This document shows, piece by piece, positions 7,101-63,848 of a DNA stretch of 64,000 nucleotides. The position numbers and the translations under genes are program-made. The notes under the pieces are model-generated. The model worked only from the letters and a program-made list of their open reading frames with translations. It was not told the origin of the DNA and ran no database searches. Origin of the DNA: Bacteroidales bacterium (GTDB lineage: Bacteria > Bacteroidota > Bacteroidia > Bacteroidales > UBA932); the NCBI GenBank assembly GCA_017625535.1, contig JAGAKR010000018.1:1-64000 (forward strand). Reading direction: 5' to 3'. Numbering within the stretch: position 1 is the first letter of the stretch; every line of letters begins with the position of its first letter.

Positions 7101-7178
7101 GTGGGTACTGCGGTAAGTATCTTCTTTATTCCGGTGCTGTATTACAACATTTATAAACGTGTCGGGAAGAAAAACTAA
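4134..7178 (+). CDS. RND efflux transporter, first of a tandem pair
   Basis: This inner membrane pump has 1014 residues and the full RND plan: TM1 at the N-terminus, a periplasmic porter/docking region, a TM2-6 block, a second periplasmic half, and TM8-12. The TM4 motif reads LGLGMMVDNSIIVIDNI, so the Asp-Asp pair of AcrB is Asp-Asn here. In TM10 the AcrB lysine position reads INDSILKVD. Such variants are common in HAE-1-like Bacteroidetes pumps. Proton drive is expected from the family. The next gene, 6 bases downstream, encodes a second and quite different RND protein, so a mixed trimer as in MdtBC is possible (inference). Confidence 0.93.
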   Translation: MLRRLVERPIAVTMTIIAILIVGIVAIGRLPISLMPNVDIPQITVQVAASGTSAREINEQVIKPFRMQLIQIPSLEDIRCEAVNGSGNIFMEFSHKSDTDLNFIEVNEKIDKVLSSLPKEVERPKVIKASATDIPAFFINLTIPGSSVEKFLELSRFAKEVIARRVEQVPQVALVDISGTLGTQILIEPDEAKLQGLGIGVDELEKAVGNNNVTLGNLSIRDGYYQWNVSFDSQLKSREDIEAITLNLNGRIYTFGELAKVSEVPQEAHGMVQQGAERAITMAVIKQSDAQMAALKSSLEELTENFAKEYPHIEFTVTRNQTELLDYSIDNLKSNILVGAILAVLVIFLFMRDYRSPLLVMITIPLSLVVSLLLLYLLGISINIISLSGLILGLGMMVDNSIIVIDNITQYWQRGSSLKVAVVEATREVVAPMLSSVLTTCSVFVPLIFLSGISGALFYDQAMAVTMALFTSLFVAVLVIPVYYWQLYRKQERFAPSGFRQESIGKKKSFLDRIDDWYEKGLKWTLRHQKTAWGVFFALIAGTFLFYGVLEKSKLPPITHKDIILNIDWNAPITLEESRARCSKILEGLEQHIAHYDLLIGKQDFLLSHSGDITPSQVKCYIDAHTPDDLAQVEPVLLKRIQEKYPQATTGFEESSNIFNTIFADNEAPLVAMISRKDSKSLQPDQLNRVLQQIKERLPQVYIEPVLWQEQILLVTQPEQMALYNLGYGAIYQALSTATKENTLFSIKQGSFSTPVVIGDAGEQKDLLAVTVKNSQGAEIPLSYVLKERRVRDLKNIVQGRDGDYYPLNINVPDNMIPAVEKAIKETILSTDEFAVEFAGGYYTSRGMIGELAIILIISLLLLYFILAAQFESLVQPFIILSEIVADLTGALLLLWICGAGINLMSMIGIVVMCGIIINDSILKVDTINRLRKQYSLLRAIMVAGNRRLSPILMTSLTTILAIAPFLVRGNMGADLQFPLSLALIGGMVVGTAVSIFFIPVLYYNIYKRVGKKN

Positions 7179-7184
7179 AATATT

Positions 7185-10100
7185 ATGAACCGCCTCCCTG
7201 CATTCTCAGTGATACTTGTGTTTGCCGTGCTTACAATTGTTGGTGCAGGTATGGTTCCCCTTTTGAACCTGCAGTACTCCCCCTCGCAGAAAGAGGGTGA
7301 ATTGAGTGTGAGTTACGCCTGGAACGGGGCGCCTGCCAAACTGGTGGAGAGTGAGGTGACATCGCGCCTGGAGGGGCTTATAGTTTCCATAAGCGGAGTA
7401 AAAAGCATTGAATCCACCTCCTACAAGGATTGGGGAAGGATAAATGTAACCCTGAAGGACAAAAGGGAGATTGAGCAGATAAGGTTCCAGATTGCCACCC
7501 TGCTCCGCCAGACATACAACAAGCTTCCCGACGGAGTCTCCTACCCTGCCATTTCGGTGGCCACAGGGGGGAGCAACGTGGAGCCCATCCTCATCTACAC
7601 CATAAACTCGGAACTCCCCACCCAGCAGATAGAGCAGTATGCCCAGGAGTATATTGTAAAGGAACTCTCACTGGTGGAGGGGATAAGTTCTGTGGAACTG
7701 TCGGGAGCCACACCATTTTACCAGAGGCTGGAATTTGATCCCCAGCAGATGAGGGCACTGGGGGTCTCCATTGGGGAACTGGTTGCGGCAGTGAGGGGAT
7801 TTGTGTCTGACTACAACCTTGTGGGGAGTGTGGACCAGACAGGAATACTCCTTACAAACAATTTCTCTTCAGACGAACTGGCCTCCATACCTCTAAGGAG
7901 CAGCAACGGAAAGATTATCCGGGTGGGGGACGTATGCTCCGTGGAGTACAAGGAAAGCCTTCCAACCCGGTACTACAGGCTAAACGGCCTGAACACCATA
8001 AACATTACGGTTTTTCCGCAGAAAGGGGCCAACACCGTTGCCGCCTGCACTGCAGTGAAGGAGAAGATGGCCCAATTGGAGGAGTCTTTTCCCGACAATT
8101 TCTCTGCCCTTGCGGTGAGTGACATCTCCATTGAGATACAGCAGGAGATAACTAAAATCATACGGAGGACCGTTTTGTCACTGGCCATACTGCTGCTGTT
8201 TGTGTTTGCAGTGAGCCGGAGCCTGAGGTACCTGCTTGTAATTGCCGGGGCCCTGCTGGCCAACATCCTCATTGCATTCATCTTCTATGTGCTGTTTGGG
8301 ATAGAGATACATATCTACACTATGGCCGGCATCACCACCTCGTTTGGAATAGTGATAGACACCTCCATAATAATGGTGGCCCACTACAGCTACTGGCGCA
8401 ACAGGAAGGTGTTCCTGGCCATACTGGCTGCCCTGCTTACCAGCATAGGCTCCCTTACTGTAATATTTCTGCTTCCAGAGGAGCAGCAGCTTGTACTGAG
8501 GGATTTTGCATCGGTGATAATGATAAACCTCTCGGTTTCACTGCTCATTGCAATGTTGCTGATTCCGGCCCTTGTAGAGAAATTTGATGTAAGGGAGAGG
8601 CAGGGCAAAGCCACTTTGTGTGGTCTGCGGAGGGTTGCCCGGATCAGCAGGTTCTACGGCAGGTACATCACCTTTGCCCGCAGGTGGAGATGGGCGCTGC
8701 TGGTGCTGTTGGTATTGGGATTTGCAGGGAGTCTCTATTACTTCAAGGAGAACTCCAAGGGGAACTTCTACCGCTCATTGAACAGACCTAACCTGTATAT
8801 AATTGCCTCACTGCCGCAGGGGTGTACAATACATCAGTTGAATGAGATTGTGCTGTTTATGGAGAACTATCTTTCCCAGTTTGATGAGATTGAGATGTTC
8901 CGCACCTCCATTACAAGTGCTTCCAACGCCACTATTATAGTAACTTTCCGCAAGGATGTGGAGAATGGCGGGTTCCCGCTGCTGCTCAAGGATGAGGTTA
9001 TCTCCAAGGCAGTGGATTATGGAGGGGCAAACTGGAGGGTCTACGGAATTGATGAGCACGGGTTCAGCAACAATGTGAATGCCATTTCTGCCGGCAACCG
9101 TATTGTAGTTACCGGGTACAGTTATGACAAAGTATATGGGTATTGCCAGAATTTGGTGGAATCCCTGCAGCAGAACCGCAGGGTTAGGGATTGTGAGATT
9201 CTGACCAGCACCAGCTGGGGAGCACGCAAGCAGAGCGAGTATTTTATAGATTACAACAGGGAGGCTATGGCCATTCATAATGTATCTGCAGCGGATGCCT
9301 ATTCTGCCCTGCAGGAACAGTTGTATGCCAGGAATGCCGGAACCTATTACAAGGATGGGGTACGGACAGACATTTCCGTGCAGAGCAAGGGGAAGGAGAG
9401 TTTTGATGTGTGGAACCTGCAGAATGAGTATGTGCAGGTTGCTGGAGAGGGGATAAAGTTCTCCCAGTTGGGCTCCATAAGCAAAAGGGACTCGGGAATG
9501 GAGATATACAAGAAGGACCAGGAGTACCAGATGGCGGTTACATTCGGATACCTGGGACAGATGACGCAGGCAGAAAGGCTCATTGAGAGGGAGATTGAGA
9601 GGATGAACACCTCTGTGCTGCCGGTAGGGTTCAAGGCAAAGCAATATACCTGGAACTACGGGGCATTTGATGACCCAAACAACATCTGGATATTGCTGCT
9701 GGTAATTGCCATCATCTATTTTATGTGCGCCGTATTGTTTGAATCGCTGCTGATGCCGCTGGTGATTATAGGACTTATTCCTGTCTCCTTCATTGGGGTA
9801 TTCCTGGTATTCGGCTTCACCGGCTGGAGTTTCGACCAGGGGGGATATGCATCATTAATTATGCTCAGCGGACTTGTGGTGAATGCTGGGATTTACATTC
9901 TGCATCAGTATGGGGGGATGCTTGTGGGGGATACGGATGCTACTGGGAATACAAATGCTGATGGAGGAAAGTCTTCTGCTGTCGGGAAGAAGAAAGCCCT
10001 GCAGATTTACCTGAGGGCCTTCAACAACAAGATTGTCCCAATTTCCCTTACTGTGGTTTCCACCGTGCTGGGGCTCATTCCGTTCCTTATGGACGGGCCG

Positions 10101-10208
10101 GATGAGGTGTTCTGGTTTGCCTTTGCCATTGGCACAATGAGCGGTCTGGTGTTCTCCCTGCTGGCTCTGGTTGTTGTGATGCCTATGTGGGTGAGGCTTT
10201 CTAACTGA
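7185..10208 (+). CDS. RND efflux transporter, second of a tandem pair
   Basis: This second RND pump has 1007 residues and the same domain order as the gene before it. It is more diverged: TM4 reads TSFGIVIDTSIIMVAHY, with a single Asp, and TM10 reads LSGLVVNAGIYILHQYG with no charged residue where AcrB has Lys940. The weaker set of proton-relay residues suggests it may rely on its partner, as one subunit of a hetero-oligomer (inference). It starts 6 bases after the first pump and closes the operon. Its last 8 bases overlap the 3' end of the SDR gene on the other strand. Confidence 0.92.
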   Translation: MNRLPAFSVILVFAVLTIVGAGMVPLLNLQYSPSQKEGELSVSYAWNGAPAKLVESEVTSRLEGLIVSISGVKSIESTSYKDWGRINVTLKDKREIEQIRFQIATLLRQTYNKLPDGVSYPAISVATGGSNVEPILIYTINSELPTQQIEQYAQEYIVKELSLVEGISSVELSGATPFYQRLEFDPQQMRALGVSIGELVAAVRGFVSDYNLVGSVDQTGILLTNNFSSDELASIPLRSSNGKIIRVGDVCSVEYKESLPTRYYRLNGLNTINITVFPQKGANTVAACTAVKEKMAQLEESFPDNFSALAVSDISIEIQQEITKIIRRTVLSLAILLLFVFAVSRSLRYLLVIAGALLANILIAFIFYVLFGIEIHIYTMAGITTSFGIVIDTSIIMVAHYSYWRNRKVFLAILAALLTSIGSLTVIFLLPEEQQLVLRDFASVIMINLSVSLLIAMLLIPALVEKFDVRERQGKATLCGLRRVARISRFYGRYITFARRWRWALLVLLVLGFAGSLYYFKENSKGNFYRSLNRPNLYIIASLPQGCTIHQLNEIVLFMENYLSQFDEIEMFRTSITSASNATIIVTFRKDVENGGFPLLLKDEVISKAVDYGGANWRVYGIDEHGFSNNVNAISAGNRIVVTGYSYDKVYGYCQNLVESLQQNRRVRDCEILTSTSWGARKQSEYFIDYNREAMAIHNVSAADAYSALQEQLYARNAGTYYKDGVRTDISVQSKGKESFDVWNLQNEYVQVAGEGIKFSQLGSISKRDSGMEIYKKDQEYQMAVTFGYLGQMTQAERLIEREIERMNTSVLPVGFKAKQYTWNYGAFDDPNNIWILLLVIAIIYFMCAVLFESLLMPLVIIGLIPVSFIGVFLVFGFTGWSFDQGGYASLIMLSGLVVNAGIYILHQYGGMLVGDTDATGNTNADGGKSSAVGKKKALQIYLRAFNNKIVPISLTVVSTVLGLIPFLMDGPDEVFWFAFAIGTMSGLVFSLLALVVVMPMWVRLSN

Positions 10209-10956
10209 TTTTCAATTTATACCACAACCAGTTGGGGATGAGGCTCCAAAGGGCTGTTACAATTGCCCATTTCCAGTCTATTGTGGCTGTATGTTTCCGG
10301 GCGTCTATGGCTTTCTTTATCCGCTGGGAGGCGTATGGGAGTTGCATTGTAAGGGGATAGTTGCGTCCTTTTATGAAATCTGTGGCCACAAAGCCCGGCT
10401 TTATGGTGGTGAAGGTCATATTCCATCCCTTTACTGCCGCCAATTGGCGGAGCGATTCCATATACCTTACCTGGTACATTTTGGTGGCCGAGTATGATGC
10501 GCTTATCCCTATTCCCCTGTTTGATGCTATTGAGGATATGGTTGCAAACTGAACGTGGTGTCCGGCGGTGCTGCCATACTCCACTACTGCCGCCGCTATG
10601 GCAGTGAATCCCTTTACATTTACATTTATGGTGCTGTACTCTATTGGCATCTCCAGTTGGGCATTCTGTTTGCCTACCCCTGAGCAGTAGATTACCAGAT
10701 CCACCCCTCCAAGCGCCTCCAGCATCTCCAGGAACCTCCCTCTTGGGCTCTCTTCCGGATTGCCCCCCTCCTCCTGCGGCAGTGCCTGAAGATCTGCCCT
10801 GAACGTTATAATATTTATAGGATACTCCCTCTGCAGCTCCTTCAGCATCTCCTCCCTGCGTGCCGCCACCGCCACCATATTCCCCTCTGCCGCATAACTC
10901 TTTGCCAGCTCCGCCCCTATCCCGGATGAGGCTCCAAAAATTACAATTTTTTTCAT
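10201..10956 (-). CDS. Short-chain dehydrogenase/reductase (SDR)
   Basis: This is a classical NAD(P)-dependent SDR of 251 residues. Visible motifs are GASSGIG (8-14) for nucleotide binding, YCSGVG in place of NNAG (90-95), the catalytic Ser at 141/142, and Tyr155 with Lys159 in YSATK. The C-terminus ends in an amphipathic or membrane-seeking stretch (WALVTAL-like, then LIPNWLWYKL), as in SDRs that act on membrane lipids or long-chain substrates. The substrate cannot be read from the sequence. It converges on the efflux operon with an 8-base overlap. A long, hairpin-rich leader lies upstream (10957-11100). Confidence 0.88.
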   Translation of the reverse strand: MKKIVIFGASSGIGAELAKSYAAEGNMVAVAARREEMLKELQREYPINIITFRADLQALPQEEGGNPEESPRGRFLEMLEALGGVDLVIYCSGVGKQNAQLEMPIEYSTINVNVKGFTAIAAAVVEYGSTAGHHVQFATISSIASNRGIGISASYSATKMYQVRYMESLRQLAAVKGWNMTFTTIKPGFVATDFIKGRNYPLTMQLPYASQRIKKAIDARKHTATIDWKWAIVTALWSLIPNWLWYKLKIS

Positions 10957-10974
10957 AGAAATAAAAGTTTTTTT

Positions 10975-11049
10975 GGAAGTCGGTCCCCGACTTCCCTGGA
11001 ACCCGAGACCCGACTTCCCCGAAAAAACGCCCTTGGAGACATCTCCAAG
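10975..11049 (-). promoter_or_regulatory. Hairpin-rich leader between SDR and cstA
   Basis: Two strong inverted repeats sit in the 5' region of the SDR gene. One has arms CTTGGAGA and TCTCCAAG (11032-11049); on the minus strand it is followed by GGGCGTTTTTT, as in an intrinsic terminator. The other is a 9-bp perfect repeat, GGAAGTCGG and CCGACTTCC, with a 3-base loop (10975-10995). The word GGGAAGTCGGG also occurs twice. The arrangement looks like an attenuator in the SDR leader, though it might also be terminator debris. Confidence 0.45.
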
Positions 11050-11093
11050 CCAAGTTCCAGATTTTAATTTTGTAAAAATACTATAAAAAATAA

Positions 11094-11101
11094 TAAATTT
11101 G
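11094..11101 (+). promoter_or_regulatory. Promoter of the cstA gene (-33 TTG, -7 TAAATTTG)
   Basis: TAAATTTG fits the Bacteroidetes -7 box, and a TTG lies at 11070-11072 with a 21-base spacer, which is the expected spacing. It is 22 bases before the cstA start codon. A second -7 box on the opposite strand (TATATTTG, 11105-11112) lies 4 bases away and faces it, so the two promoters would compete. Confidence 0.6.
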
Positions 11102-11123
11102 TCTCAAATATAAACTAAAGAGA

Positions 11124-12554
11124 ATGATCACTTTTCTAATTTCAATTACGGTCCTTATTGCCGGGTATTTTACATACGGCAAGTTTATAGACAAGTTTTT
11201 TGGGGCAGATCCAAAGAGGAGCGTTCCGGCCATAGAGATGGCGGACGGTGTGGATTACCAGGTACTTAAGCCTTGGAAGATTTTCATCATACAGTTCCTC
11301 AACATTGCGGGGCTGGGGCCAATTTTTGGTGCCATTATGGGTGCGGCTTACGGACCTATAGCATATTTGTGGATTGTTTTGGGATGTATCTTTATGGGTG
11401 CCACACACGATTACGTGGCAGGTATGCTTTCGCTCAGGCACAATGGTGCCAGCCACAATGAGGTGATTGGCAAATACCTTGGAAAAGGGTTCCAGAAATT
11501 CCTAACTTTTGTAATAATTGCACTGCTGTTTGCCGTGGGAACATCGTTCATCAGCGGCCCTGCAGGATTGTTGCAGCAGATGTCGGGATGGGACATAAAG
11601 GTTTGGCTTGTAATAATTTTCATCTATTATGTAATTGCCACTCTTCTCCCTGTAGATAAAATTATTGGTGCAATATACCCATATATGGGTGCAATACTGC
11701 TCTTTATGGCAGTGGCAATTGGAGGTACCCTTGTAGTGAAAGGGTTCAGCGGCGAAATTACAATGGTGGAACTTACAGCAGACACCTTCCGCAACTATAA
11801 GTCAAATGCAAGCGAGTATATGCTCATCCCTATGCTCTTTATTGTAATCTCCTGCGGAGCAATAAGCGGATTCCACGCAACACAGTCGCCACTTATGGCC
11901 CGCTGTATGAGCAATGAGAAATACGGCCGCCCAATATTCTACGGGGCAATGATTGCAGAGGGAGTTGTAGCCTGCATCTGGGCAACAGCGGCAATGGCAT
12001 ACTTCGGCGGTCCGGAGCAGCTCAACATTATGGCAGACAGCGGAAATACCCCTGCCATAATTGTAAATGCAATATGCGAAAGCTGGCTTGGCAAGGCTGG
12101 AGCCATAATTGCAATCCTGGGCATTGTGGTTTGCCCAATCACCTCCGGCGACACCGCATTCCGCAGCCTCAGGCTCATCCTGGCAGATGCCCTCAACTTC
12201 TCCCAGAAACCAATAAAGAACAGGATACTCATCTGTATCCCAATCTTCTTCATTGCATTCCTCAGTTGTACAATTGACTTCTCAATAATCTGGACATACG
12301 TAGGAATAAGCAACCAGCTCCTTGCAGCCACCACCCTATGGGCCTGTGCGGCCTACTTTGCATCGGTGGGCAAGAACCATCTGGTAATGTCTGTACCGGC
12401 AGTATTCATCACATATGTAAGTGTATGCTTCCTCCTTGTTGCCCCTAACGTACAGGGAGGCCTCAACCTGGAACCAATCATAGGGTACATAGGCGGCGCA
12501 GTGGCAGCACTTGCCTGTGCAGGAGTGTTCTATGCAAAGAAGGTGAGGAAGTAA
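11124..12554 (+). CDS. cstA: CstA-family carbon starvation / peptide or pyruvate transporter
   Basis: This polytopic inner membrane protein of 476 residues carries the CstA signature regions (FLNIAGLGPIFGAIMGAAYG, GATHDYVAGMLSLRHNGAS, SCGAISGFHATQSP). CstA proteins import peptides or pyruvate when carbon is short. At 476 residues it is shorter than the E. coli protein (about 700) and matches the compact form common in Bacteroidetes and Firmicutes. It is a single-gene unit with its own promoter and a strong terminator directly downstream. Which substrate it moves is not decided by the sequence. Confidence 0.92.
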   Translation: MITFLISITVLIAGYFTYGKFIDKFFGADPKRSVPAIEMADGVDYQVLKPWKIFIIQFLNIAGLGPIFGAIMGAAYGPIAYLWIVLGCIFMGATHDYVAGMLSLRHNGASHNEVIGKYLGKGFQKFLTFVIIALLFAVGTSFISGPAGLLQQMSGWDIKVWLVIIFIYYVIATLLPVDKIIGAIYPYMGAILLFMAVAIGGTLVVKGFSGEITMVELTADTFRNYKSNASEYMLIPMLFIVISCGAISGFHATQSPLMARCMSNEKYGRPIFYGAMIAEGVVACIWATAAMAYFGGPEQLNIMADSGNTPAIIVNAICESWLGKAGAIIAILGIVVCPITSGDTAFRSLRLILADALNFSQKPIKNRILICIPIFFIAFLSCTIDFSIIWTYVGISNQLLAATTLWACAAYFASVGKNHLVMSVPAVFITYVSVCFLLVAPNVQGGLNLEPIIGYIGGAVAALACAGVFYAKKVRK

Positions 12555-12558
12555 TTTT

Positions 12559-12567
12559 CTTCCCGAC
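12559..12567 (-). repeat. Intergenic copy of the dispersed word GTCGGGAAG
   Basis: This is one of 16 exact copies of a 9-bp word. Plus-strand copies start at 7161, 9981, 14458, 24959, 26467, 32076, 37265, 42659 and 56771. Minus-strand copies start at 7524, 12559, 19562, 27232, 42411, 55385 and 63207. This copy lies between the cstA stop codon and its terminator. The usual extended form is TGTCGGGAAGA. About 0.5 copies would be expected in both strands of 64 kb at equal base use. Confidence 0.8.
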
Positions 12568-12576
12568 AAATATACC

Positions 12577-12612
12577 AAGAGGAGGTGCCCAAAATGACAC
12601 CTCCTCTTTTTT
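12577..12612 (+). terminator. Intrinsic terminator of cstA
   Basis: An 11-bp stem (AAGAGGAGGTG with CACCTCCTCTT) is followed by a run of T. It lies 23 bases after the cstA stop codon. Confidence 0.85.
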
Positions 12613-12746
12613 GTGCAGAATTGCAGCATTATTGACACAAACTTTCAATTCCATCGCCACTTTGTGCAGAAAACTGGCATATTTGACACAAACTTTCATT
12701 TCCATCGCCACTTTGTGCAGAAAAGTGGTATATTTGACACAAACTT
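12610..12746. repeat. Tandem repeat, 51-bp unit, about 2.7 copies
   Basis: Units start at 12610, 12661 and 12712. The second unit follows the first with only a few changes; the third is complete for about 35 bases. Each unit begins TTTGTGCAGAA and contains TTGACACAAAC, so TTTGTG and CACAAA can pair within a unit. The unit length is a multiple of three, and both strands stay open, but there is no sign of a real gene. A weaker relative (GGTGCAAAA, then TTTTTGACACTGAAAC) lies at about 22628-22660. Confidence 0.85.
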
Positions 12747-12789
12747 GGATAGGCATTGGCCTCTGCACAACTGCGTGGGATGCACATAC

Positions 12790-13878
12790 TTACAGCAGGG
12801 CATAACTCTTGGTACTCTTTACCCCCGGATACCCGTAGTAGGACTGTACGATTGTGCCGGTTACAACAACCGGGCGCCCGAGATTGTCGGGATTATTCAC
12901 AAGATTGAGGGCATCCCTCACCTCTCCGGAGGGGAGTTCCACCACCATCATATTGTTGCGGTTCCTCTCTGTCATTGAAGGGGCAATTACAATTGTGGCC
13001 CTGGATTCAAACGGGGGCCCCACCCTTACCGTTGTGGTTGAAGGATCTCCTCCAAAAAGATACCCGAACACCTTTATGTTCTTCTCCCCTATGTGCCCCT
13101 TTGCCTCAGCAATTGTAAGGGCACCGGTGGGGATCTTCAATCCTGCATTGAAGTTCATTGTACTCCACGCCCTTGTGGTATCCACCTCAACTTTGAATAC
13201 CGATGCCGTTGTACGGCTGGAACTGTGCGAAAGGCGCATTGTAACCATCTGCCCCGCCTCCAGGGATTTCTCAAGCAGCAGGGTGTCTTTACCGCCTGTG
13301 CCATATACAATTGAGAACGGCTCGGCAGAGACATATGCATATTTTGTCTGGCTGTAGCCATATTCCAGCCTCTTCTCCCCCTGCACAAGGGCAACTCCGC
13401 TGCCGGGGAACTTCTCCTTGAAACTCTCCTCAAACTGCAGCCTTATGCCGGCATTCACCTGGGTGCACCTGAAAGAGACCCTTGCCTGTTCATTCTCTGC
13501 CACCACTATTGTGTGCTCCTCCCCAAAAACCGGTGCATCAAGCGCCGGCGGAGTGAAGTTCCTGGAATAGAGCCCAACCTCATAGCCTCCCGGGGTAACG
13601 GAGATCTCCATCGGCCTCTGGCCGTAAGCCCCCTCATATACCTTCTCCCCCGCAGTAGAATAAATCTTAAGGATAAAACTATTGGTATCAGTATTGATGC
13701 CGCTTTTAAGAAAGGTACCGTCTGAATAGTGCTCCTGTGGCACCCCATCAATGGCAAAGGCTATCCGCCCGTTTGCCTGAGGCTTCTCCTCCGGTCCCTT
13801 GAGCATAAATGATGTACACCCCTGCAGAACAAATGCGGCAACGGCAAGGCCGCAAAAAACTCTCTTTAAACTTTTCAT
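12790..13878 (-). CDS. Lipoprotein with DUF4493-like and DUF6359-like domains
   Basis: The start at 13878 is chosen because it gives a lipoprotein signal (FVLQGC, Cys21) and has AGGAGGAG just upstream; the open frame itself runs to 14013. The 362-residue product has a beta-rich domain of the DUF4493 kind (SFILKIYSTAGEKVYEGAYG, then PGGYEVGLYS; about residues 45-230). A C-terminal OB-fold-like domain resembles DUF6359 (LTIAEAKGHIGEKNIKVFGY, about 255-360). Both domains occur in surface lipoproteins of gut Bacteroidales. The function is unknown. The gene stands alone, with a possible promoter at 13908-13915. Confidence 0.8.
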   Translation of the reverse strand: MKSLKRVFCGLAVAAFVLQGCTSFMLKGPEEKPQANGRIAFAIDGVPQEHYSDGTFLKSGINTDTNSFILKIYSTAGEKVYEGAYGQRPMEISVTPGGYEVGLYSRNFTPPALDAPVFGEEHTIVVAENEQARVSFRCTQVNAGIRLQFEESFKEKFPGSGVALVQGEKRLEYGYSQTKYAYVSAEPFSIVYGTGGKDTLLLEKSLEAGQMVTMRLSHSSSRTTASVFKVEVDTTRAWSTMNFNAGLKIPTGALTIAEAKGHIGEKNIKVFGYLFGGDPSTTTVRVGPPFESRATIVIAPSMTERNRNNMMVVELPSGEVRDALNLVNNPDNLGRPVVVTGTIVQSYYGYPGVKSTKSYALL

Positions 13879-13907
13879 ATCTCCTCCTCTTTTAATTTGG
13901 TTTGGGG

Positions 13908-13915
13908 CAAAAATA
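13908..13915 (-). promoter_or_regulatory. Possible -7 box (TATTTTTG) for the lipoprotein gene
   Basis: On the minus strand the site reads TATTTTTG, fitting TAnnTTTG, 30 bases before the chosen start codon. No TTG is found at the -33 distance. Confidence 0.35.
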
Positions 13916-14001
13916 CCTGCACCTGCAAAAAGAGGATCCGTAAAAAAGCAAATATTACGTTTATACACGGATAAATATCTTTTTTTAGAAAAATTTACGG
14001 G

Positions 14002-14042
14002 TAAAAAATTCACGAGACCAACCCTAGAACAGGGTGGCCTCG
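14002..14042 (-). terminator. Intrinsic terminator after the helicase gene
   Basis: On the minus strand a hairpin (CGAGGCCACCCT with AGGGTTGGTCTCG, loop GTTCT) is followed by TGAATTTTTTACC. It lies about 50 bases after the helicase stop codon. Confidence 0.65.
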
Positions 14043-14094
14043 CTACTTAAACCTAAACTTAAACTATGAAAAACTTCATAGCAAGAAAATACAA

Positions 14095-52486: not shown

Positions 52487-52497
52487 TTCAAATGCTC

Positions 52498-55768: not shown

Positions 55769-55798
55769 ATCTTCTTTTAATCTGTAATATAAATCACA

Positions 55799-55818
55799 CA
55801 AAAGTAGTAATAATTTTG
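55799..55818. promoter_or_regulatory. Divergent promoters of the lpx and rimP operons
   Basis: On the minus strand TACTTTTG (55799-55806) precedes lpxD; on the plus strand TAATTTTG (55811-55818) precedes rimP. They lie 4 bases apart. Confidence 0.5.
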
Positions 55819-55877
55819 CAATAATTTGGTTTTCTCACAATTATTCAGTTACTTTGCACTTGAAATGAGAGGCTTGA

Positions 55878-55899
55878 GGGTGACCGCGTGCGGTTGCCC
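55878..55899 (+). promoter_or_regulatory. Hairpin in the rimP leader
   Basis: GGGTGACCGC and GCGGTTGCCC form a stem with one internal tg/tg mismatch and a 2-base turn. It lies about 20 bases before the rimP start and is followed by a T-rich stretch. A role in attenuation or autoregulation is possible. Confidence 0.5.
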
Positions 55900-55921
55900 T
55901 TTAGTTTTATTTGCAGAGATT

Positions 55922-56392: not shown

Positions 56393-56426
56393 TTTTACGG
56401 AATAATTTTTTAATGACAACATAAAA

Positions 56427-57659
56427 ATGGAAGGCCTTAATTTAATCAGCACATTTGCAGAATTTAAAGAGCTTAAAAACATCGACCGCCCTACAATGAT
56501 GAGTGTATTGGAGGACATTTTCCGCACACAGCTTGCAAAGATGTACGGCACCGCCGACAACTTTGACATCATCATAAACATAGACAAGGGCGATTTTGAG
56601 ATTTGGAGGAACAGGACAGTTGTGGAGACCGTTGAGGATCCCAACACTGAGATTTCAAAAGAGGAGGTTGACAAGATTGACAACTCTTACGAGATTGGCG
56701 AGGAGTTTACCGAGGAGGTGAAACTTGCAAGTTTCGGAAGAAGGGGTATCCTCAATTTGAGGCAGAATCTGTCGGGAAGAATAATGGACATTGAGAAGGC
56801 TAACCTTTTCAATGCTTACAGGGACAGGATTGGTGAGATTATGGTTGGTGAGGTTTACCAGGCGTGGAAAAAAGAGGTGCTTGTACTTGATGAGGAGGGC
56901 AATGAACTCCTTCTACCAAAGGGTGAGCAGATTCCTTCCGATTTCTTCCGCAAAGGTGAGTCTGTAAGGGCTGTGATCTCAAAGGTTGAGATGAAGAACA
57001 ACAATCCTGTAATCATACTTTCAAGAACCGCTCCTGTATTCCTTGAGAGGTTGTTTGAGCAGGAGGTTCCTGAGATTTTTGACGGCCTCATAACAATAAA
57101 GAAGATTGTACGTATCCCTGGCGAGAGGGCAAAGGTTGCAGTTGAGTCTTACGATGAGAGGATTGACCCTGTAGGAGCTTGCGTGGGTGTGAAAGGTTCA
57201 CGTATCCACGGCATTGTAAGGGAGCTCAAGAATGAGAACATAGACATCATCAACTGGACATCAAATACCCAGCTGCTTGTACAGAGGGCATTGAGTCCTG
57301 CCAAGATCTCTTCAATAAAGATTGAGGAGGGCAAGATAAGCGTATGGCTGAAACCTAACGAGGTATCTCTTGCAATCGGTAAGAACGGAAGCAACATCAA
57401 ACTTGCAAGCATGCTTGTAGGTCAGGAGATTGAGGTGTTCAGGGAACTTGACGAGGAGGAAGAGGATGTATTGTTGGCAGAGTTCAGCGATGAGATTGAC
57501 CAGTGGATCATTGACGCGCTCCAGGGAATAGGTTGCGACACTGCAAAGAGTGTTCTTGCACTTTCTGTACAGGACATTGTGAAGCGTGCAGACCTTGAGG
57601 AGGAGACAGTGATTGAGGTACAGAACATTCTCAAATCTGAGTTTGAGGACGAGAAATAA
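56427..57659 (+). CDS. nusA: Transcription factor NusA
   Basis: NusA binds RNA polymerase and controls pausing and termination. The 410-residue protein has the N-terminal polymerase-binding domain (about 1-125), an S1 domain (about 130-200), two KH domains (PVGACVGVKGSRIHGIVREL and EVSLAIGKNGSNIKLASML), and a short C-terminal helical part. A GTCGGGAAG copy is read as SGR. It lies 34 bases after rimP. Confidence 0.95.
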   Translation: MEGLNLISTFAEFKELKNIDRPTMMSVLEDIFRTQLAKMYGTADNFDIIINIDKGDFEIWRNRTVVETVEDPNTEISKEEVDKIDNSYEIGEEFTEEVKLASFGRRGILNLRQNLSGRIMDIEKANLFNAYRDRIGEIMVGEVYQAWKKEVLVLDEEGNELLLPKGEQIPSDFFRKGESVRAVISKVEMKNNNPVIILSRTAPVFLERLFEQEVPEIFDGLITIKKIVRIPGERAKVAVESYDERIDPVGACVGVKGSRIHGIVRELKNENIDIINWTSNTQLLVQRALSPAKISSIKIEEGKISVWLKPNEVSLAIGKNGSNIKLASMLVGQEIEVFRELDEEEEDVLLAEFSDEIDQWIIDALQGIGCDTAKSVLALSVQDIVKRADLEEETVIEVQNILKSEFEDEK

Positions 57660-57690
57660 TTTAGGTTGAATTTAAAATGGGGGATAAAAT

Positions 57691-60495
57691 ATGACAGGAA
57701 ACGAGAATATCAGAATAGGTAAAGTACTTAAGGAGTTCAATATAGGAATGGGTACCCTTGTTGAGTTCCTGCGCAAGAAAGGCATTGACATTGATTCCAA
57801 TCCGGGTGCAAAACTTTCCGGCGACCAATATGCACTTGTTGCAAAAGAGTTCAAGAAAGAGCAGATTGTAAAGGAGGAATCAAAGAAGGTTGCCATAAAG
57901 GTTAAGGACATAACAGACAAGGAACCCAAATCAATTGAAGATGAGGAGCCTGTGAAGGAGTTGTTCATAAAGACAACTGTAGAGGAGGTGAAGGGTCCCA
58001 AAATCCTTGGCAAGATTGACCTGGACAAACCTAAGGCACAGCCTGTACCTGCACAGAAACCTGCAGAACCAAAACCGGTTGAAAAACCAGTGGAGAAGCC
58101 TGCAGAGCCAAAACCAGTTGAGAAACCAGCGGAAAAACCTGTAGAGAAGCCAGTAGAGAAGACTCCCGACAGCCCTAAAGCGGAGCCTGCACCTGTTCCC
58201 CCAACAGTTCAGCCACAACCTGAAAAGGGTGCAAAGAAAGAGGAGACAAAGAACACTCCTCCGGTAATTGAGCACATTGAAACAAAAGTGCAGAAACTTA
58301 CAGGTCCTAAGATCAGCGGTACAATTGATTTGTCGCAGTTTGAGAGGAAGAAACCTTCAAACGACAACAAGAACAACAAAGGCAAGAGGGAGAGGATACA
58401 CAAGAAGAACGAGAAGGTTGATGTTGTAAAGGAGGCAAGGCAGAACAACAACGGAAAACCTGCCGGCAACAACCAGGGCAAACAGCAGGGTCCTGGTGCA
58501 AACCAGAACAAGCAGCAGGCTGCAAACAAGAACCACAACGGCAAGGGGAACAAGAAGGACAAGTTCAAACCTGTAAAAGTGGAGATTGATGAGGATGCTG
58601 TACAGAAACAGATAAAGGAGACCTACCAGAGGATGGTAGAGGGCAAAGGAAAGACCAAAGGCTCAAAATACAGGAAAGAGAAGAGGGAGCAGAACATCCA
58701 GAGGATGATGGAGGAGGAAGAGTTGCAGCAGATGAACAGCAACGTGCTCAAAGTTACCGAGTTCGTTACTGTCAATGAGCTCTCTACAATGATGAACACT
58801 CCTGTTATAAAGGTAATTGAGGCGTGTATGAACCTTGGCCTTATGGTGTCAATCAACCAGAGGCTTGATGCAGAGGCCCTTGTACTTGTTGCAGAAGAGT
58901 TCGGATACAAGATTGACTTTGTAACTGCAGAGATTCAGGAGACAATAGACGAGGAGAACGATGTTGACACCCCAGAGATGATGGAGGAGAGACCTCCTAT
59001 CGTAACTGTAATGGGACACGTTGACCACGGTAAGACATCATTGCTCGACTATATCCGTAAAGCCAATGTAATTGCCGGTGAGGCGGGCGGTATCACACAG
59101 CACATTGGTGCATACAATGTGAAACTCCCTAACGGAAGAAGAATCACATTCCTTGATACTCCGGGCCACGAGGCGTTTACAGCAATGCGTGCCCGCGGTG
59201 CGAAAGTGACTGACCTTGCAATCATCATTGTGGCTGCCGATGACGCAATAATGCCACAGACAATTGAGGCAATCAGCCACGCACAGGCAGCAGGCTGTCC
59301 TATGATCTTTGCCATAAACAAGATAGACAAACCGGCTGCAAACCCGGACAAGATCAGGGAGCAGCTTTCACAGATGAACATTCTTGTAGAGGACTGGGGC
59401 GGAAAATACCAGTGCCAGGAGATCTCTGCAAAACAGGGTATAGGCATTGAGGACCTCTTGGACAAGGTACTTCTTGAGGCCGATATGCTTGAACTAAAGG
59501 CCAACCCTAACAAGAAGGCTGTAGGTTCTGTAATTGAGTCATCTTTGGACAAGGGACGAGGTTTCCTTGCAACCATCCTTGTACAGGCAGGTACACTGCA
59601 CGTTGGTGATGTAATCTTGAGCGGATGCTACACTGGTAAGGTTAAAGCAATGTTCAACGAGCGCGGCCAGAAAGTTACAGAGGCCGGCCCTTCAACTCCG
59701 GTATCAATCCTCGGTTTGAACGGTGCCCCTACTGCAGGTGAGAACTTCAACGTATTTGACGATGAGAAAGAGGCCAAAGACATTGCAAACAAGAGGGAGC
59801 AACTGTTGCGTATCCAGGGCTTGAGGACACAGAAACACATTACCCTTGAGGAGATTGGACGCCGTATTGCTATAGGAAACTTCCAGGAACTTAACGTAAT
59901 CATCAAAGGTGACGTGGACGGTTCAATTGAGGCATTGTCCGATTCATTGATCAAACTCTCTACAGAGGAGATCCACGTTAACGTAATCCACAAGGCTGTG
60001 GGTGCAATCTCTGAGTCTGACGTGCTTTTGGCTGCAGCATCAAATGCAATCATCATAGGTTTCCAGGTAAGGCCTTCTGCAAATGCAAGGAAACTTGCAG
60101 ACAACGAGGAGATTGAGATAAGGCTCTACTCTGTCATCTATGATGCCATCAACGAGGTTAAGAGCGGTATTGAGGGTATGCTTGCTCCAGAGGAGAAAGA
60201 GGAGGTTACAGCAACTGCAGAGGTTAGGGAGACCTTCAAGATTTCCAAAGTTGGTACAATTGCCGGCTGTATGGTTAAGGAGGGCAAACTTACCAGAAAT
60301 GCAAAAGTGCGCGTAATCAGGGACGGCATTGTAGTTTACACCGGTGTACTGGGTTCTTTGAAACGCTTCAAGGACGACGTTAAAGAGGTACAGAGCGGCT
60401 ACGACTGCGGTCTTAACATTGAGGGCTACAACGACATTAAAGTTGGAGACGTTGTTGAGGCTTACCAGATTGTTGAGATTAAGAGGACTTTGTAA
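57691..60495 (+). CDS. infB: Translation initiation factor IF-2
   Basis: IF-2 brings fMet-tRNA to the ribosome using GTP. The 934-residue protein has an IF2-N domain (about 5-55) and a long low-complexity linker with repeats of [12 protein letters not shown] (about 115-185), then basic Asn/Lys-rich DNA. The G domain follows, with [22 protein letters not shown] and NKIDK, then two beta-barrels and the C-terminal fMet-tRNA domain. The repeat linker is much richer in Pro/Glu/Lys than most. It lies 31 bases after nusA. Confidence 0.96.
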
Positions 60496-60530
60496 AAGTC
60501 TCCTGAATATACATCAGAAAGTCTGATTAC

Positions 60531-60573
60531 AAAAACAACCCCCGTTAGAGTACGCTCTGGCGGGGGTTGTTTG
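60531..60573 (+). terminator. Intrinsic terminator of the rimP-nusA-infB operon
   Basis: The stem AACAACCCCCG with CGGGGGTTGTT holds an inner AGAG-TAC-GCTCT and is followed by TTGTTC. It lies 36 bases after the infB stop codon. Confidence 0.88.
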
Positions 60574-60639
60574 TTCAAAACGGAAGTTAAGTGTCATCAT
60601 CTTTTTTCATATACATCGGTATCCTCCCCCCCTTACTGC

Positions 60640-60647
60640 TATGTTTG
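60640..60647 (+). promoter_or_regulatory. Possible -7 box (TATGTTTG) of a candidate small RNA
   Basis: This fits TAnnTTTG. The expected start point, near 60654, falls at the base of the inverted repeat that follows. No -33 TTG is found. Confidence 0.4.
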
Positions 60648-60651
60648 GACG

Positions 60652-60832
60652 TCCACAGCTTCCTGATTTCCTGCAATTCACTGGCCACATATACCCCATT
60701 TATACTACCCTGCAATGTGGGGTAATGTGGAAAATCAGACAATATTGTCGGACTCTCCACTCCAATCCCCTCCAGAACACGTTCACAGACGGTTCAATGT
60801 GGCCGGTGAATTGCAGGAGGAAATCCTCCCGC
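60652..60832 (+). ncRNA. Candidate structured small RNA between infB and folP
   Basis: Two arms (about 60666-60691 and 60797-60825) match over TGTGGCCRGTGAATTGCAGG and further bases. Between them lie ACCCCA with TGGGGT, GTGGA with TCCAC, and the perfect palindrome GACAATATTGTC. A short GGAGG-AAAT-CCTCC hairpin closes the end. The whole region, 446 bases without a gene, otherwise holds only the infB terminator and the folP promoter. The strand is inferred from the upstream -7 box. Confidence 0.5.
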
Positions 60833-60904
60833 CAGACAAACGCGCTGGGTGGTGCATTGCCCGTAAAATTTGATTATTGGAGAAGGATTTTTGCATATTA
60901 TATT

Positions 60905-60912
60905 TACTTTTG
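60905..60912 (+). promoter_or_regulatory. Promoter -7 box (TACTTTTG) of folP
   Basis: This fits TAnnTTTG, 29 bases before the folP start codon at 60942. A -33 TTG is not clear. Confidence 0.45.
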
Positions 60913-60941
60913 TCGTACACACAAGCAATACTGGCAAGCAA

Positions 60942-61787
60942 ATGAAAGAATATGACCGCCCTTCAATAATGGGTATTTTGAATATAAACAACGAATCCTT
61001 CTACAGTAACAGCAGGCATGTTGCCATTGATGATGTGGAAAGGACATTTGTAAAAATGGTGGCAGATGGGGCTGACATTATTGATATTGGTGCCTGTTCC
61101 ACCCGCCCTGGAAGCACGCCCGTAACATTGGAGCAGGAGTGGGGATATTTGCAGGAGCCGCTGGGGATGATAGCCGGGAAATTGTTGTGCAATAATGATT
61201 TGCAGGAAAGAATAAAGATTTCCCTGGATACTTTCCGCAGTGAGATTGTCCGCAGGGCTTATGACATTCTTGGAAATTTTATTGTGAATGACATCTCTGC
61301 CGGGGATGATGACCCACAGATGCTCCAGACTGTTGGAGAACTGCACCTCCCATATATAGCAATGCACAAGAGGGGGACACCTGCCACAATGCAACAGATG
61401 ACAGATTACCCGCAAGGGGTTGTGGATGCTGTAATTGAATATTTCAAGGAGTTTGAGGAGAGGGCTGCCAAATATGGCATTCCGGATTATATTATGGACC
61501 CCGGATTCGGGTTTGCCAAGACACTTGAACAGAATTATGAATTGTTCAAAGGGTTGCCGCAGCTTTCCAGTGCAATTGAAGAGTATGCCGGAATCCGCCG
61601 CAAACTTCTGGTAGGAATTTCCCGCAAAGGGATGATTTGGAGGCCACTTGGCATTACTCCCGACGAAGCACTCTGCGGCACAGTAGCGCTCAACCTACAG
61701 GCCCTTTTGCTTGGGGCAGACATTATAAGGGTGCACGATGTGGCAGAGGCTGTACAGTGCCTAAAATTATGGGAGTTTCTCCGATAG
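60942..61787 (+). CDS. folP: Dihydropteroate synthase
   Basis: FolP joins para-aminobenzoate to the pterin in folate synthesis. The start at 60942 (MKEYDRPSIMGILNINNESF) fits; an earlier ATG at 60870 lies before the promoter box. The 281-residue TIM barrel has IDIGACSTRPGSTPV, FIVNDISAGDDDP, MDPGFGFAKTLEQN and VGISRKGM. In loop 1 the usual NVTPDSF reads NINNESF, so Thr, Pro and Asp are changed, which is odd for a DHPS. This loop binds the substrates and sulfonamides. Confidence 0.9.
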   Translation: MKEYDRPSIMGILNINNESFYSNSRHVAIDDVERTFVKMVADGADIIDIGACSTRPGSTPVTLEQEWGYLQEPLGMIAGKLLCNNDLQERIKISLDTFRSEIVRRAYDILGNFIVNDISAGDDDPQMLQTVGELHLPYIAMHKRGTPATMQQMTDYPQGVVDAVIEYFKEFEERAAKYGIPDYIMDPGFGFAKTLEQNYELFKGLPQLSSAIEEYAGIRRKLLVGISRKGMIWRPLGITPDEALCGTVALNLQALLLGADIIRVHDVAEAVQCLKLWEFLR

Positions 61788-61805
61788 GTAATGACCAGTT
61801 TTAAT

Positions 61806-61813
61806 TATCTTTG
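61806..61813 (+). promoter_or_regulatory. Promoter -7 box (TATCTTTG) of tmk
   Basis: This fits TAnnTTTG, 22 bases before the chosen tmk start, and lies just after the folP stop codon. Confidence 0.45.
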
Positions 61814-61835
61814 CTTTTATAAAACAAACACATAT

Positions 61836-62540
61836 ATGCTTATAGTACTGGAGGGCCTGGATGGGGCCGGCAAAAGCACACAGGTAAAGAAATTGAAGGA
61901 GTATCTCTTGGACAAAGGGGTAAATTTGAGGTATCTGCATTTTCCAAGATATGATGCCCCGCTGTATGGAGACCTCATTGGCAAATATCTGCGCGGTGAT
62001 TTGGGCAGTATTGAGCAGGTGTATCCGCAGATTGTGGCATTGCTGTTTGCCCTGGACCGTATGGATGCTTCTGCCCAAATAAAGAAGTGGCTGGAGGCAG
62101 GTGACTGCGTACTGCTGGACCGCTATGTCTATTCCAACATTGCATACCAATGCTCCAAGATAATGATGCAGCCACAGTTTGGGGAGAACCGCAGGGAGAA
62201 GGCACAGGAACTGCGCAACTGGATTTTTGATACAGAATACAACAAATACGGCATCCCAAGGCCGGATATGAACCTCTTCCTGGATGTTCCAATCAGTTTT
62301 GTGGATTCAAAACTTAAGGAGAGCCGCAGCGGGGATGATGACAGGGACTACCTTAACGGCAAAGAGGACATCCACGAGGCCGACATACAGTTCCAGATTT
62401 ATGTAAGGGAGATGTACCTTGAACAAACCAAAGCGGATGAGGGTTTTGTAAGGGTTCATTGTGAGGATGCCCAGGGGAATATGCTTCCTCCAGATGACAT
62501 TTTCAACAACATAAAGGAGCAGGTGGAGAAACTGTTTTAA
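61836..62540 (+). CDS. tmk: Thymidylate kinase
   Basis: Tmk phosphorylates dTMP to dTDP. The start at 61836 (MLIVLEGLDGAGKSTQ) gives the normal N-terminus with the P-loop; the frame from 61791 overlaps the promoter box. The 234-residue protein has FPRYDAPLYG, the DRYVYSNIAYQ motif, and a C-terminal extension with SRSGDDDRDYL for the lid region. It is a little longer than the E. coli enzyme, as often in Bacteroidetes. Confidence 0.93.
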   Translation: MLIVLEGLDGAGKSTQVKKLKEYLLDKGVNLRYLHFPRYDAPLYGDLIGKYLRGDLGSIEQVYPQIVALLFALDRMDASAQIKKWLEAGDCVLLDRYVYSNIAYQCSKIMMQPQFGENRREKAQELRNWIFDTEYNKYGIPRPDMNLFLDVPISFVDSKLKESRSGDDDRDYLNGKEDIHEADIQFQIYVREMYLEQTKADEGFVRVHCEDAQGNMLPPDDIFNNIKEQVEKLF

Positions 62541-62561
62541 AAATTTATCGGGAAACTGAAA

Positions 62562-63848
62562 ATGAAACTTTTAAGGGCAATATGCAGGTTTGCGTTTGGG
62601 ATTCTGTTTATACTTTCGGGATTCCTGAAGGCCATTGACCCTATAGGGAGCGCACTTAAGATAAAAGAGTATCTGGGGGCATTCCACCTTGGATTCATGG
62701 ATTTTCTCTCCATCCCTTCCGGCATACTGCTCTCAACAGCGGAGTTTCTGGTTGGCGTTGCAATCCTAAAAGGGCTGCGGATAAAGTTCTTCTCAAAAAT
62801 TGCACTGGGATTCATCTCATTCTTCACCCTCCTCACCCTTATAATATTCATCTTCAATCCTGTAAGCGACTGCGGATGTTTTGGGGAGGCAATACACCTG
62901 AGCAACAAGACTACATTCATAAAGAACCTCTTCCTGCTGGGAGCCGCACTTGTGGTTTACCTGCAGAGGGAGAAATTCCGCCCCATTGCAACCCCAAAAA
63001 TTGAATGGGGATACCTTGTGGCATACGGGGTGCTCATAATTGCCCTGCAGGGATACTCCCTGCGCAACATCCCGCAGATAGACTTTGGAGTGTACAAGGC
63101 CGGCACAGACCTCATTGCTGCACAACAGGAGAACCAGGAGAGGGAATATGAAACCACATTCATATATGAAAAGGACGGGGTGCAGGAGACCTTTACCATA
63201 AACAATCTTCCCGACAGCACCTGGACATATGTAGATGCAGAAACCCACCTTGTTGGAGGGGCATCTGAAGATGCATCGGTTGACTTCTCGTTCATAGACG
63301 GAGACGGCTATGCTGTGGGTAATGAAATAGTGAACACTCCAGGGCCCGTATTCTTCATCTCCATCTACAATGCCAGAGCACTTGGCAAGAAGGCAGTGGC
63401 GAAGATAATTGACCTTGCATCTGTGCTGCAGCAGCACAACCTGAAACTGTACATAATAAGCGCCAACACCGTAGAGGAGACCCAGGCCCTGTTTGAACCA
63501 TATATGGGGATGTACGGCGGAAGTTTTGAAATCCTCTATGCCGACTACAAAATGGTGATATCGCTCAACCGCTCCAGCGGTGGCCTCACATACGTGAACA
63601 GCGGCATTATCATAGAAAAATGGGCCCGTGGAAACTACCCTATTGGTTCTCTTGATGAGTTGCTTGCCCAAGACCCTGAAGTAATCACCGCCCAGGCCCA
63701 GATAAGCGAACAGCTCTTTGCTGAGATATCACTCTTTGTGATACTGTTCCTCATTGTAATCATCCGCTTCTTCTCCAAGATAGTGTACAGGCATACGGTT
63801 GTGAAAGGCAGAGAGGATGTTGATGGTGAGGCGGCTGAGGCACACTGA
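62562..63848 (+). CDS. DoxX-like membrane protein, BT_3928 family
   Basis: This 428-residue protein has four N-terminal membrane helices of the DoxX/MauE type (about 1-135), with SDCGCFGEAIHLSNKTTF, which includes the CGCFG motif. One more helix follows (about 150-165), then a soluble periplasmic part of about 220 residues and a last helix near residue 395. The soluble part has a thioredoxin-like look, but no CxxC is seen. The function is unknown; a redox or membrane-stress link is likely by family. A GTCGGGAAG copy reads LPDS. Confidence 0.8.
   Translation: MKLLRAICRFAFGILFILSGFLKAIDPIGSALKIKEYLGAFHLGFMDFLSIPSGILLSTAEFLVGVAILKGLRIKFFSKIALGFISFFTLLTLIIFIFNPVSDCGCFGEAIHLSNKTTFIKNLFLLGAALVVYLQREKFRPIATPKIEWGYLVAYGVLIIALQGYSLRNIPQIDFGVYKAGTDLIAAQQENQEREYETTFIYEKDGVQETFTINNLPDSTWTYVDAETHLVGGASEDASVDFSFIDGDGYAVGNEIVNTPGPVFFISIYNARALGKKAVAKIIDLASVLQQHNLKLYIISANTVEETQALFEPYMGMYGGSFEILYADYKMVISLNRSSGGLTYVNSGIIIEKWARGNYPIGSLDELLAQDPEVITAQAQISEQLFAEISLFVILFLIVIIRFFSKIVYRHTVVKGREDVDGEAAEAH

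What the first reader, a model, noticed from the sequence alone, without database searches (positions are those of the whole stretch)
7161..63215. Sixteen copies of a 9-bp word GTCGGGAAG spread over the window
GTCGGGAAG occurs exactly 16 times: plus-strand copies start at 7161, 9981, 14458, 24959, 26467, 32076, 37265, 42659 and 56771; minus-strand copies start at 7524, 12559, 19562, 27232, 42411, 55385 and 63207. About 0.5 copies are expected in two strands of 64 kb at equal base use. Near-copies (ATCGGGAAG, GTCGGGAAC, TTGTCGGGAA) add more. The copies are read in different frames (VGK, LPD, SGR), often in linkers or at protein ends (RND C-terminus, helicase linker, FtsK linker), and one is intergenic. 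Strand use is even (9 to 7), unlike Chi or KOPS sites, which are skewed. This pattern is close to DNA uptake sequences or another marker word read by a DNA-binding protein, and I know of no such word described for Bacteroidales.
Basis: partly seen in the sequence, partly recalled or inferred. Interest (0 to 1): 0.75.

Follow-up and report, generated by a model that had tools for sequence, protein, structure and literature searches.

The report
Genome-wide repeated word in gut bacteria

Summary
The 16 copies are real and sample a genome-wide word: 325 GTCGGGAAG in 2.18 Mb against 16 of the reversed control. The full motif, YYRTCGGGAD with A-rich flanks, occurs about once per 1.6-1.8 kb, strand-balanced, in six reading frames (244 against about 16 after synonymous shuffling), so it is selected or driven at DNA level. 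Its genus has three clade-wise dialects: A YYRTCGGGAAGA; B CYRTCGNGA (CTGTCGGGA 717 against 6 in a one-contig genome); C RTCGCNGAG (728-1311 copies in ten genomes). All keep TCG..GA..A..A. Sites stay at orthologous places (28 of 40 against 9.0 expected) and are rare in a prophage (2 in 40 kb) and a sugar-polymer cluster (1 in 20 kb). ComEC and DprA are each in 38 of 39 species; the type IV pilus ATPase family passes its cut-off in 0 of 37. Best reading: self-recognition words for DNA uptake, working like Neisseria DUS and Pasteurellaceae USS but not members of either, read by an unknown, probably non-pilus receptor. The dialect-forming word is shown; uptake is inferred (about 0.5).

The parts
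7161..7169 (+). GTCGGGAAG copy, end of AcrB/RND gene 4134-7178 (+); the only one of the 16 without YY in front
7524..7532 (-). GTCGGGAAG copy inside second AcrB/RND gene 7185-10208 (+)
9981..9989 (+). GTCGGGAAG copy (CTGTCGGGAAGA) inside AcrB/RND gene 7185-10208 (+)
12559..12567 (-). GTCGGGAAG copy, intergenic, just downstream of CstA gene 11124-12554
14458..14466 (+). GTCGGGAAG copy in UvrD helicase gene 14095-16518 (-)
19562..19570 (-). GTCGGGAAG copy in FMN-binding gene 19211-19999 (+), beside Nqr genes
24959..24967 (+). GTCGGGAAG copy in RsmF-like rRNA methyltransferase gene 24551-26005 (-)
26467..26475 (+). GTCGGGAAG copy in GH20 gene 26011-27729 (-)
27232..27240 (-). GTCGGGAAG copy in GH20 gene 26011-27729 (-)
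32076..32084 (+). GTCGGGAAG copy in FtsK gene 30459-32975 (-); an inverted partner motif lies at 32117-32126 (-)
37265..37273 (+). GTCGGGAAG copy in DHOD-B-like gene 36710-37564 (-)
42411..42419 (-). GTCGGGAAG copy in TonB-dependent receptor gene 40616-43177 (-)
42659..42667 (+). GTCGGGAAG copy in TonB-dependent receptor gene 40616-43177 (-)
55385..55393 (-). GTCGGGAAG copy in ORF 54782-55801 (-), not searched in Pfam
56771..56779 (+). GTCGGGAAG copy in ORF 56427-57659 (+), not searched in Pfam
63207..63215 (-). GTCGGGAAG copy in ORF 62562-63848 (+), not searched in Pfam
2427..63217. Span of the 43 sites of the full dialect-A motif YYRTCGGGAD in the window (21 plus, 22 minus), listed one by one

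Best explanation
The word is the core of a roughly 20-bp, one-sided DNA recognition site (A-rich 5' flank, YYRTCGGGAD, and A's three and six bases after the GA) spread through the genome as a self-mark. Shown: over-representation, selection or drive at DNA level, strand balance, three clade-wise dialects with a common TCG..GA..A..A frame, upkeep at orthologous sites, and scarcity in a prophage and a polysaccharide cluster. Inferred: the site is a DNA-uptake signal. A cell-surface DNA receptor of this genus binds it and passes double-stranded DNA of the same kind inward, ComEC takes one strand into the cytoplasm, DprA and RecA recombine it. Because DNA with good sites is preferentially taken up and recombined, sites accumulate in shared core genes, stay rare in phage and newly acquired DNA, and change together when receptor specificity drifts, which gives the dialects. 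The receptor would probably not be a type IV pilin, since no pilus ATPase was found in the genus.
For: Word 325 against 16 in the genome; YYRTCGGGAD 285 in 464 kb and 526 in 956 kb outside the window. Core single-base variants near background. Total over synonymous shuffles: A 244 against ~16, B 258 against 16.9, C 132 against 22.4 and 100 against 18.8. Strand balance: 13 of 14 counts p>0.3 (two are nested words of the own genome), one (G026) p=0.02; 126 against 110 by local GC skew in the one-contig genome. Dialects: A in 10 of 39 (one weak), C in 12 of 39 (one weak), B in 2 of 39, clade-wise on a tree of 30 of the 39. Shared A at GA+3 and GA+6 in A, B and C; in A also at intergenic sites. 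Prophage stretches 2 sites against ~22 expected; G020 cluster 1 against 12.8. Sites kept 28 of 40 against 9.0. ComEC 38 of 39, DprA 38 of 39. Printed traits of USS/DUS: near one per kb, no orientation bias, strong consensus, AT-rich flanks (USS), subclade types (PMC1626085, passages; PMC3630211, abstract and passages). Riemerella columbina, also a Bacteroidota, prefers its own DNA in uptake (PMC7965970, passages).
Against: No receptor identified; no transformation known to me in this genus, whose named records are mostly metagenome-assembled. No pilus ATPase (PF00437): 0 of 37 genus genomes over cut-off. ComEC and DprA are present equally in species without the word, so they do not discriminate. 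The ComEC-domain protein is short (363 aa in the own genome). Spacing is random, not more regular as printed for USS/DUS; non-coding preference is not significant (38 of 285, p=0.18); no gene-end bias. 15 of 39 congeners show none of the three words strongly. B and C are not perfectly exclusive: C genomes also exceed the control for the B form (e.g. G026 396 against 147). The conservation test rests on five related genomes that share many of the same sites.
Confidence: 0.5

Rival explanations
1. Chi-like recombination hotspot: the word is read as single strand by the genus's AddAB/RecBCD-type helicase-nuclease and turns degradation into recombination.
For: Non-palindromic, G-rich (resemblance to Chi octamers is recalled), frequent, poor in prophage DNA, which Chi-poor phages would also show. 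Whether the genus has AddAB or RecBCD was not searched.
Against: No leading-strand bias: 126 to 110 when the leading strand is taken from the sign of local GC skew in 23 stretches of G034 (no origin was mapped), and far from 75% (p=8e-13; the 75% for E. coli Chi is recalled). A-rich flanks on both sides and tolerance of transitions at three positions do not look like strict single-strand reading. Three spellings inside one genus.
Confidence: 0.15
2. Binding site of an abundant chromosome-organising or segregation protein (nucleoid-associated, condensin- or nucleoid-occlusion-like) that evolves quickly in this genus.
For: Counts per 20 kb round the one-contig chromosome vary no more than chance (var/mean 0.87), DNA-level conservation at orthologous sites, about 20-bp footprint with A-rich flanks.
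Against: No domain bias in the 23 stretches sampled; known organisers of this type have tens of sites (recalled), not over a thousand; fast dialect change is not expected without a drive.
Confidence: 0.15
3. Self mark for a defence or modification system (orphan methyltransferase or nuclease that spares marked DNA).
For: Prophage and a sugar-polymer cluster poor in the word; clade-wise dialects.
Against: Restriction-type sites are usually avoided, not enriched (recalled); a one-sided 20-bp site with A-rich flanks is unlike methylation motifs known to me. No defence genes were searched for.
Confidence: 0.1
4. No function at DNA level: codon-pair, protein motif or composition effect, or relics of a small repeat.
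For: Frame use is uneven: opposite frame 1 and same frame 0 hold 190 of 245 coding sites.
Against: All six frames exceed the mean of synonymous shuffles (in A each also exceeds the largest of 20 shuffles); intergenic sites share the A flanks; Pro is CCC in 186 of 361 cases before Asp against 535 of 4883 elsewhere; little sequence is conserved beyond about 20 bp, so no repeat element.
Confidence: 0.02

Closest known systems
DNA uptake sequence (DUS) dialects of Neisseriaceae (PMC3630211; abstract and passages seen)
   Same: Short word, hundreds to thousands of copies; several dialects that follow the phylogeny; invariant core plus a conserved 3' A.
   Different: Other word (TCG..GA core), other phylum, A-rich flanks, and no type IV pilus ATPase found, so no ComP-type pilin reader is expected.
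Uptake signal sequences (USS), Hin and Apl types, of Pasteurellaceae (PMC1626085; passages seen)
   Different: Different core, A-rich signal on both sides, spacing random, no pilus ATPase found, Bacteroidales.
Own-DNA preference in Riemerella columbina (PMC7965970; passages seen)
   Same: Bacteroidota; ComEC and DprA in the paper's list of competence proteins; own DNA preferred in uptake.
   Different: No word is described in the passages seen; Flavobacteriaceae, not Bacteroidales; that paper discusses a T4P-type uptake system.
Chi sites of RecBCD/AddAB (recalled)
   Same: Frequent non-palindromic word tied to recombination.
   Different: Chi is strand-biased (recalled); this is not.

Membership tests
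DUS/USS uptake words | Short non-palindromic word, strongly over-represented genome-wide | tested here: met
DUS/USS uptake words | No strand or replication bias | tested here: met
   (13 of 14 counts p>0.3; G026 p=0.02)
DUS/USS uptake words | Strong consensus: few single-mismatch copies in the core | tested here: met
   TGTCGGGAAG 67; its 18 single-base variants within TCGGGA sum to 10
DUS/USS uptake words | Clade-specific dialects with shared core | tested here: met
DUS/USS uptake words | More regular spacing than random; close inverted pairs; preference for non-coding DNA | tested here: inconclusive
   spacing random; no excess of close pairs, though 8 of the 10 pairs under 80 bp are inverted; 38 of 285 intergenic, p=0.18
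DUS/USS uptake words | Word raises DNA uptake by competent cells | not testable with these tools
   needs a culture
DUS/USS uptake words | Type IV pilus machinery (reader ComP or another minor pilin) | tested here: not met
   PF00437 over cut-off in 0 of 37 genus genomes; over it in 13 of 14 control genomes. Pilins and secretins were not searched
DUS/USS uptake words | Inner-membrane and recombination steps: ComEC, DprA | tested here: met
   38 of 39 each; own ComEC-domain protein is short, 363 aa
Chi sites | Orientation bias with replication | tested here: not met
   (leading strand assigned by local GC skew)
KOPS (FtsK) | Strong strand skew towards the terminus | tested here: not met
   an FtsK with gamma domain is in the window
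HIP1-like palindromes | Palindromic word | tested here: not met
   the motif is one-sided

The most novel reading that the evidence does not exclude
A gut Bacteroidales genus has its own sequence-specific DNA exchange: three largely exclusive uptake dialects, read by a receptor that is not a type IV pilin. This would be the first over-represented uptake-word system outside Pasteurellaceae/Neisseriaceae that I know of, and would imply barriers to gene exchange inside one gut genus.
Probability: 0.45. Interest if true: 0.92.

Novelty: new variant of a known kind. Interest (0 to 1): 0.82.

Why it matters
A dialect family in Bacteroidales without a pilus motor would show that sequence-specific self-recognition of DNA arose elsewhere with another reader, would point to natural transformation in gut anaerobes, and would make receptor-dialect co-evolution testable across the 39 held genomes of the genus.

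Tried and rejected
A second word, AGACCTTGCC, in a goat-gut relative (L037 9 against 0.1; related words in L052, L058) looked like another genus's dialect; whole-genome counts did not bear it out (GACCTTGCC 75 against 38 control in L037's genome, 76 against 54 in L052's and 115 against 57 in L058's). Rejected as local.

Spread outside the genus: GTCGGGAAG in 24 genomes of other families, highest 51 (control 26). YTGTCGGGA, which covers dialects A and B but not C, in 393 genomes of the order, 207 genera: the own genome has 697 (control 34); the highest of the other 392 is 201 (control 51) in a 3.6-Mb genome. Several others have ratios of 6-8 to control; of these G092, G301 and G145 were sampled (60, 58.7 and 40 kb) and show no word on this scale; G208 and others were not sampled.

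Codon-pair or protein-motif explanation: tested and rejected. Chi/KOPS strand skew: tested, absent. Termini bias inside genes: not found. A flanks as a codon artefact: rejected for dialect A, since intergenic sites and both orientations show them. G019 (100 kb), a word-poor congener: no word found. G021, G002 and G015 were sampled with only 40, 20 and 13.8 kb, no other word-poor congener apart from G018 and G029 at all.

Paper searches: words; uptake words with Bacteroid- or Egerieousia; competence; Chi. In what they listed I saw no word of this kind in Bacteroidales. Searches found no paper. Lists were capped (40 of 1,676; 25 of 28; 5 of 259), and only open-licence PMC papers are held. The 40 look off-topic by title.
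Full report
Observation. GTCGGGAAG occurs 16 times in the window at the stated places; shuffles give 0.20. The word is part of a longer pattern: the most over-represented 11- and 12-mers of the window are TGTCGGGAAGA and TGTCGGGAAGAA. The window lies in a 2.18-Mb, 31-contig genome with 155 forward and 170 reverse copies; the same word read backwards has 11 and 5. Named relatives found with a window protein (GH9 plus deacetylase) are Bacteroidales records, nearly all metagenome-assembled and several from ruminant gut. The five with 79-89% identity (L001-L004, L016) have TGTCGGGA (listed as TCCCGACA) among their top words. A record at 68% identity is titled Candidatus Egerieousia; the genus name is not told by any search. 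One genus genome (G019) has a contig of the same length as the record of L008.

The motif. On 464 kb of the own genome (window plus 400 kb) the consensus is Y-Y-R-T-C-G-G-G-A-D, then mostly G or T, then A, with an A-rich stretch just upstream and A's at +11 and +14. Inside TCGGGA the single-base variants stay at 0-3 copies each, while transitions are tolerated at the first three positions. There are 285 sites in 464 kb and 526 in 956 kb outside the window, so about one per 1.6-1.8 kb. Strands are balanced on each of the five contigs sampled, and spacing is as random placement would give.

DNA-level selection. Coding sites fall in all six frames. With the protein sequence held fixed and codons redrawn from the genome's usage, about 16 sites are expected and 244 seen; each frame exceeds the largest of 20 shuffles. 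In B and C the totals exceed the largest shuffle and each frame exceeds the mean. Genes were called by a simple script of mine, which missed some (for instance ORF 48858-50108), so a few sites counted as intergenic lie in ORFs. Proline before aspartate is CCC in 186 of 361 cases but in 535 of 4883 elsewhere. The downstream A's are seen at intergenic sites and in both orientations (dialect A only). Between the window and five relatives at 78-81% DNA identity, 28 of 40 alignable sites keep the motif class; 9.0 are expected from all 10-mers of the same alignments (per relative 6/6, 8/9, 4/8, 3/8, 7/9). The five share many of the same sites, so the 40 are not independent. In L002, 8 of 9 are kept although only 2 are letter-identical, so change follows the degenerate positions. 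In three more distant dialect A species, 0 of 5 alignable sites are kept (L123, L125, L126).

Dialects. In the genus, 39 genomes are held. TGTCGGGAAG is enriched in 10 (42-296 copies, the weakest being G005 with 42; the other 29 have 0-20). Stretches of word-poor congeners showed other words. The one-contig genome G034 has 371+346 CTGTCGGGA against 6 of the control; its motif is CYRTCGNGA with G, then C, then T commonest at N, and a strict first C where dialect A takes C or T. G020 and G011 have RTCGCNGAG. That motif is at 728-1311 copies against 67-120 in ten genomes, 371 against 35 in G014, and 109 against 12 in G013; a few others (G036, G033, G029) are at two to three times the control. The specific B form CYRTCGHGA is strongest in G034 (724 against 161) and G001 (450 against 90); C genomes also exceed the control for it (up to 396 against 147) and most A genomes lie below it. 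G018 and G029 hold a thin CYATCGNGA form. Aligned by their GA, the three dialects share RTCG, then one base (A, B) or two bases (C), then GA, with A's three and six bases on. On a tree of one protein from 30 of the 39 genomes, A, B and C each need one change among labelled rows, two in all. Unlabelled word-poor rows lie inside, for example G021 beside two A species. A spans two branches, so it may be ancestral with losses, or gained twice; only 6 of the 12 C genomes are in the tree. In this sample the A/B word is confined to the genus: among 393 genomes of the order the next highest has 201 YTGTCGGGA against 697, and five genomes of other genera of its family are near their controls. Dialect C words were not sought outside the genus.

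Distribution. In two neighbouring own-genome stretches (40 kb) with terminase, portal and tail-like genes there are 2 sites against about 22 expected. In G020 the one poor stretch (1 against 12.8) is a sugar-polymer cluster of low GC. In the own genome another such cluster has 5 against 11.0, not below p=0.02. A poor, AT-rich stretch of G034 (L162, 6 against 15.1) was not characterised. These few cases suggest that the shared chromosome carries the word and recently acquired DNA does not. In G034, 126 sites lie on the strand with positive local GC skew and 110 on the other, unlike Chi or KOPS.

Machinery. ComEC domain: 38 of 39. DprA: 38 of 39. The type IV pilus/T2SS ATPase family PF00437 passes its cut-off in 0 of 37 genus genomes and in 13 of 14 control genomes; the genus has only weak partial matches. 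The genomes are 73-96% complete, but a joint miss in all is unlikely. No reader was found; ComEA, secretins, pilins, AddAB/RecBCD and defence genes were not searched.

Interpretation. Printed hallmarks of uptake words (near one per kb, no orientation bias, strong consensus, AT-rich flanks of USS, subclade types; PMC1626085 passages; PMC3630211 abstract and passages) are mostly met. Regular spacing and non-coding preference are not clearly met, and no gene-end bias was seen. Since the pilus feature was tested and not met, I do not file it as a DUS or USS; I say that it works like one. Molecular drive by uptake explains both the common change of over a thousand sites and the scarcity in phage and acquired DNA, which a plain binding protein explains less well. 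Uptake itself is not shown. I therefore hold that the word is a self-recognition signal for DNA uptake at about 0.5, with Chi-like, chromosome-organising and self-mark roles as rivals. That it is a real, DNA-level, dialect-forming recognition word I hold at above 0.95.

Noticed in passing
L194:15871-16962 (-) (own contig C5): The ComEC-domain protein is short (363 aa; PF03772 profile 1-236 of 270); open frames round the match are 357-575 aa in the 38 genomes with a match.
   Followed up: no
L206 and L211 (own contig C20, 1-40000): Prophage with terminase, SPP1-type portal, a weak tail match and a NUMOD/HNH homing-type endonuclease.
   Followed up: partly
window 37590-40091 (-): GH9 cellulase fused to a C-terminal polysaccharide deacetylase; each half also has a separate match elsewhere in the genome.
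   Followed up: no
L215 (own contig C18, 100001-120000): Low-GC polysaccharide cluster with a gene matching Antibiotic_NAT (PF02522), somewhat poor in the word.
   Followed up: no
L112 (G015): GCATCTGAAC 10 against 0.3 expected in 13.8 kb of a word-poor congener; may be a local repeat.
   Followed up: no
window: Palindrome TGCTGCAGCA, 10 occurrences counted over both strands (5 sites) against 1.2 expected.
   Followed up: no
G034 contig C1 and own genome: The strongest flank position differs by dialect: A six bases after the GA in B (73%), A three bases after it in A (75%).
   Followed up: no
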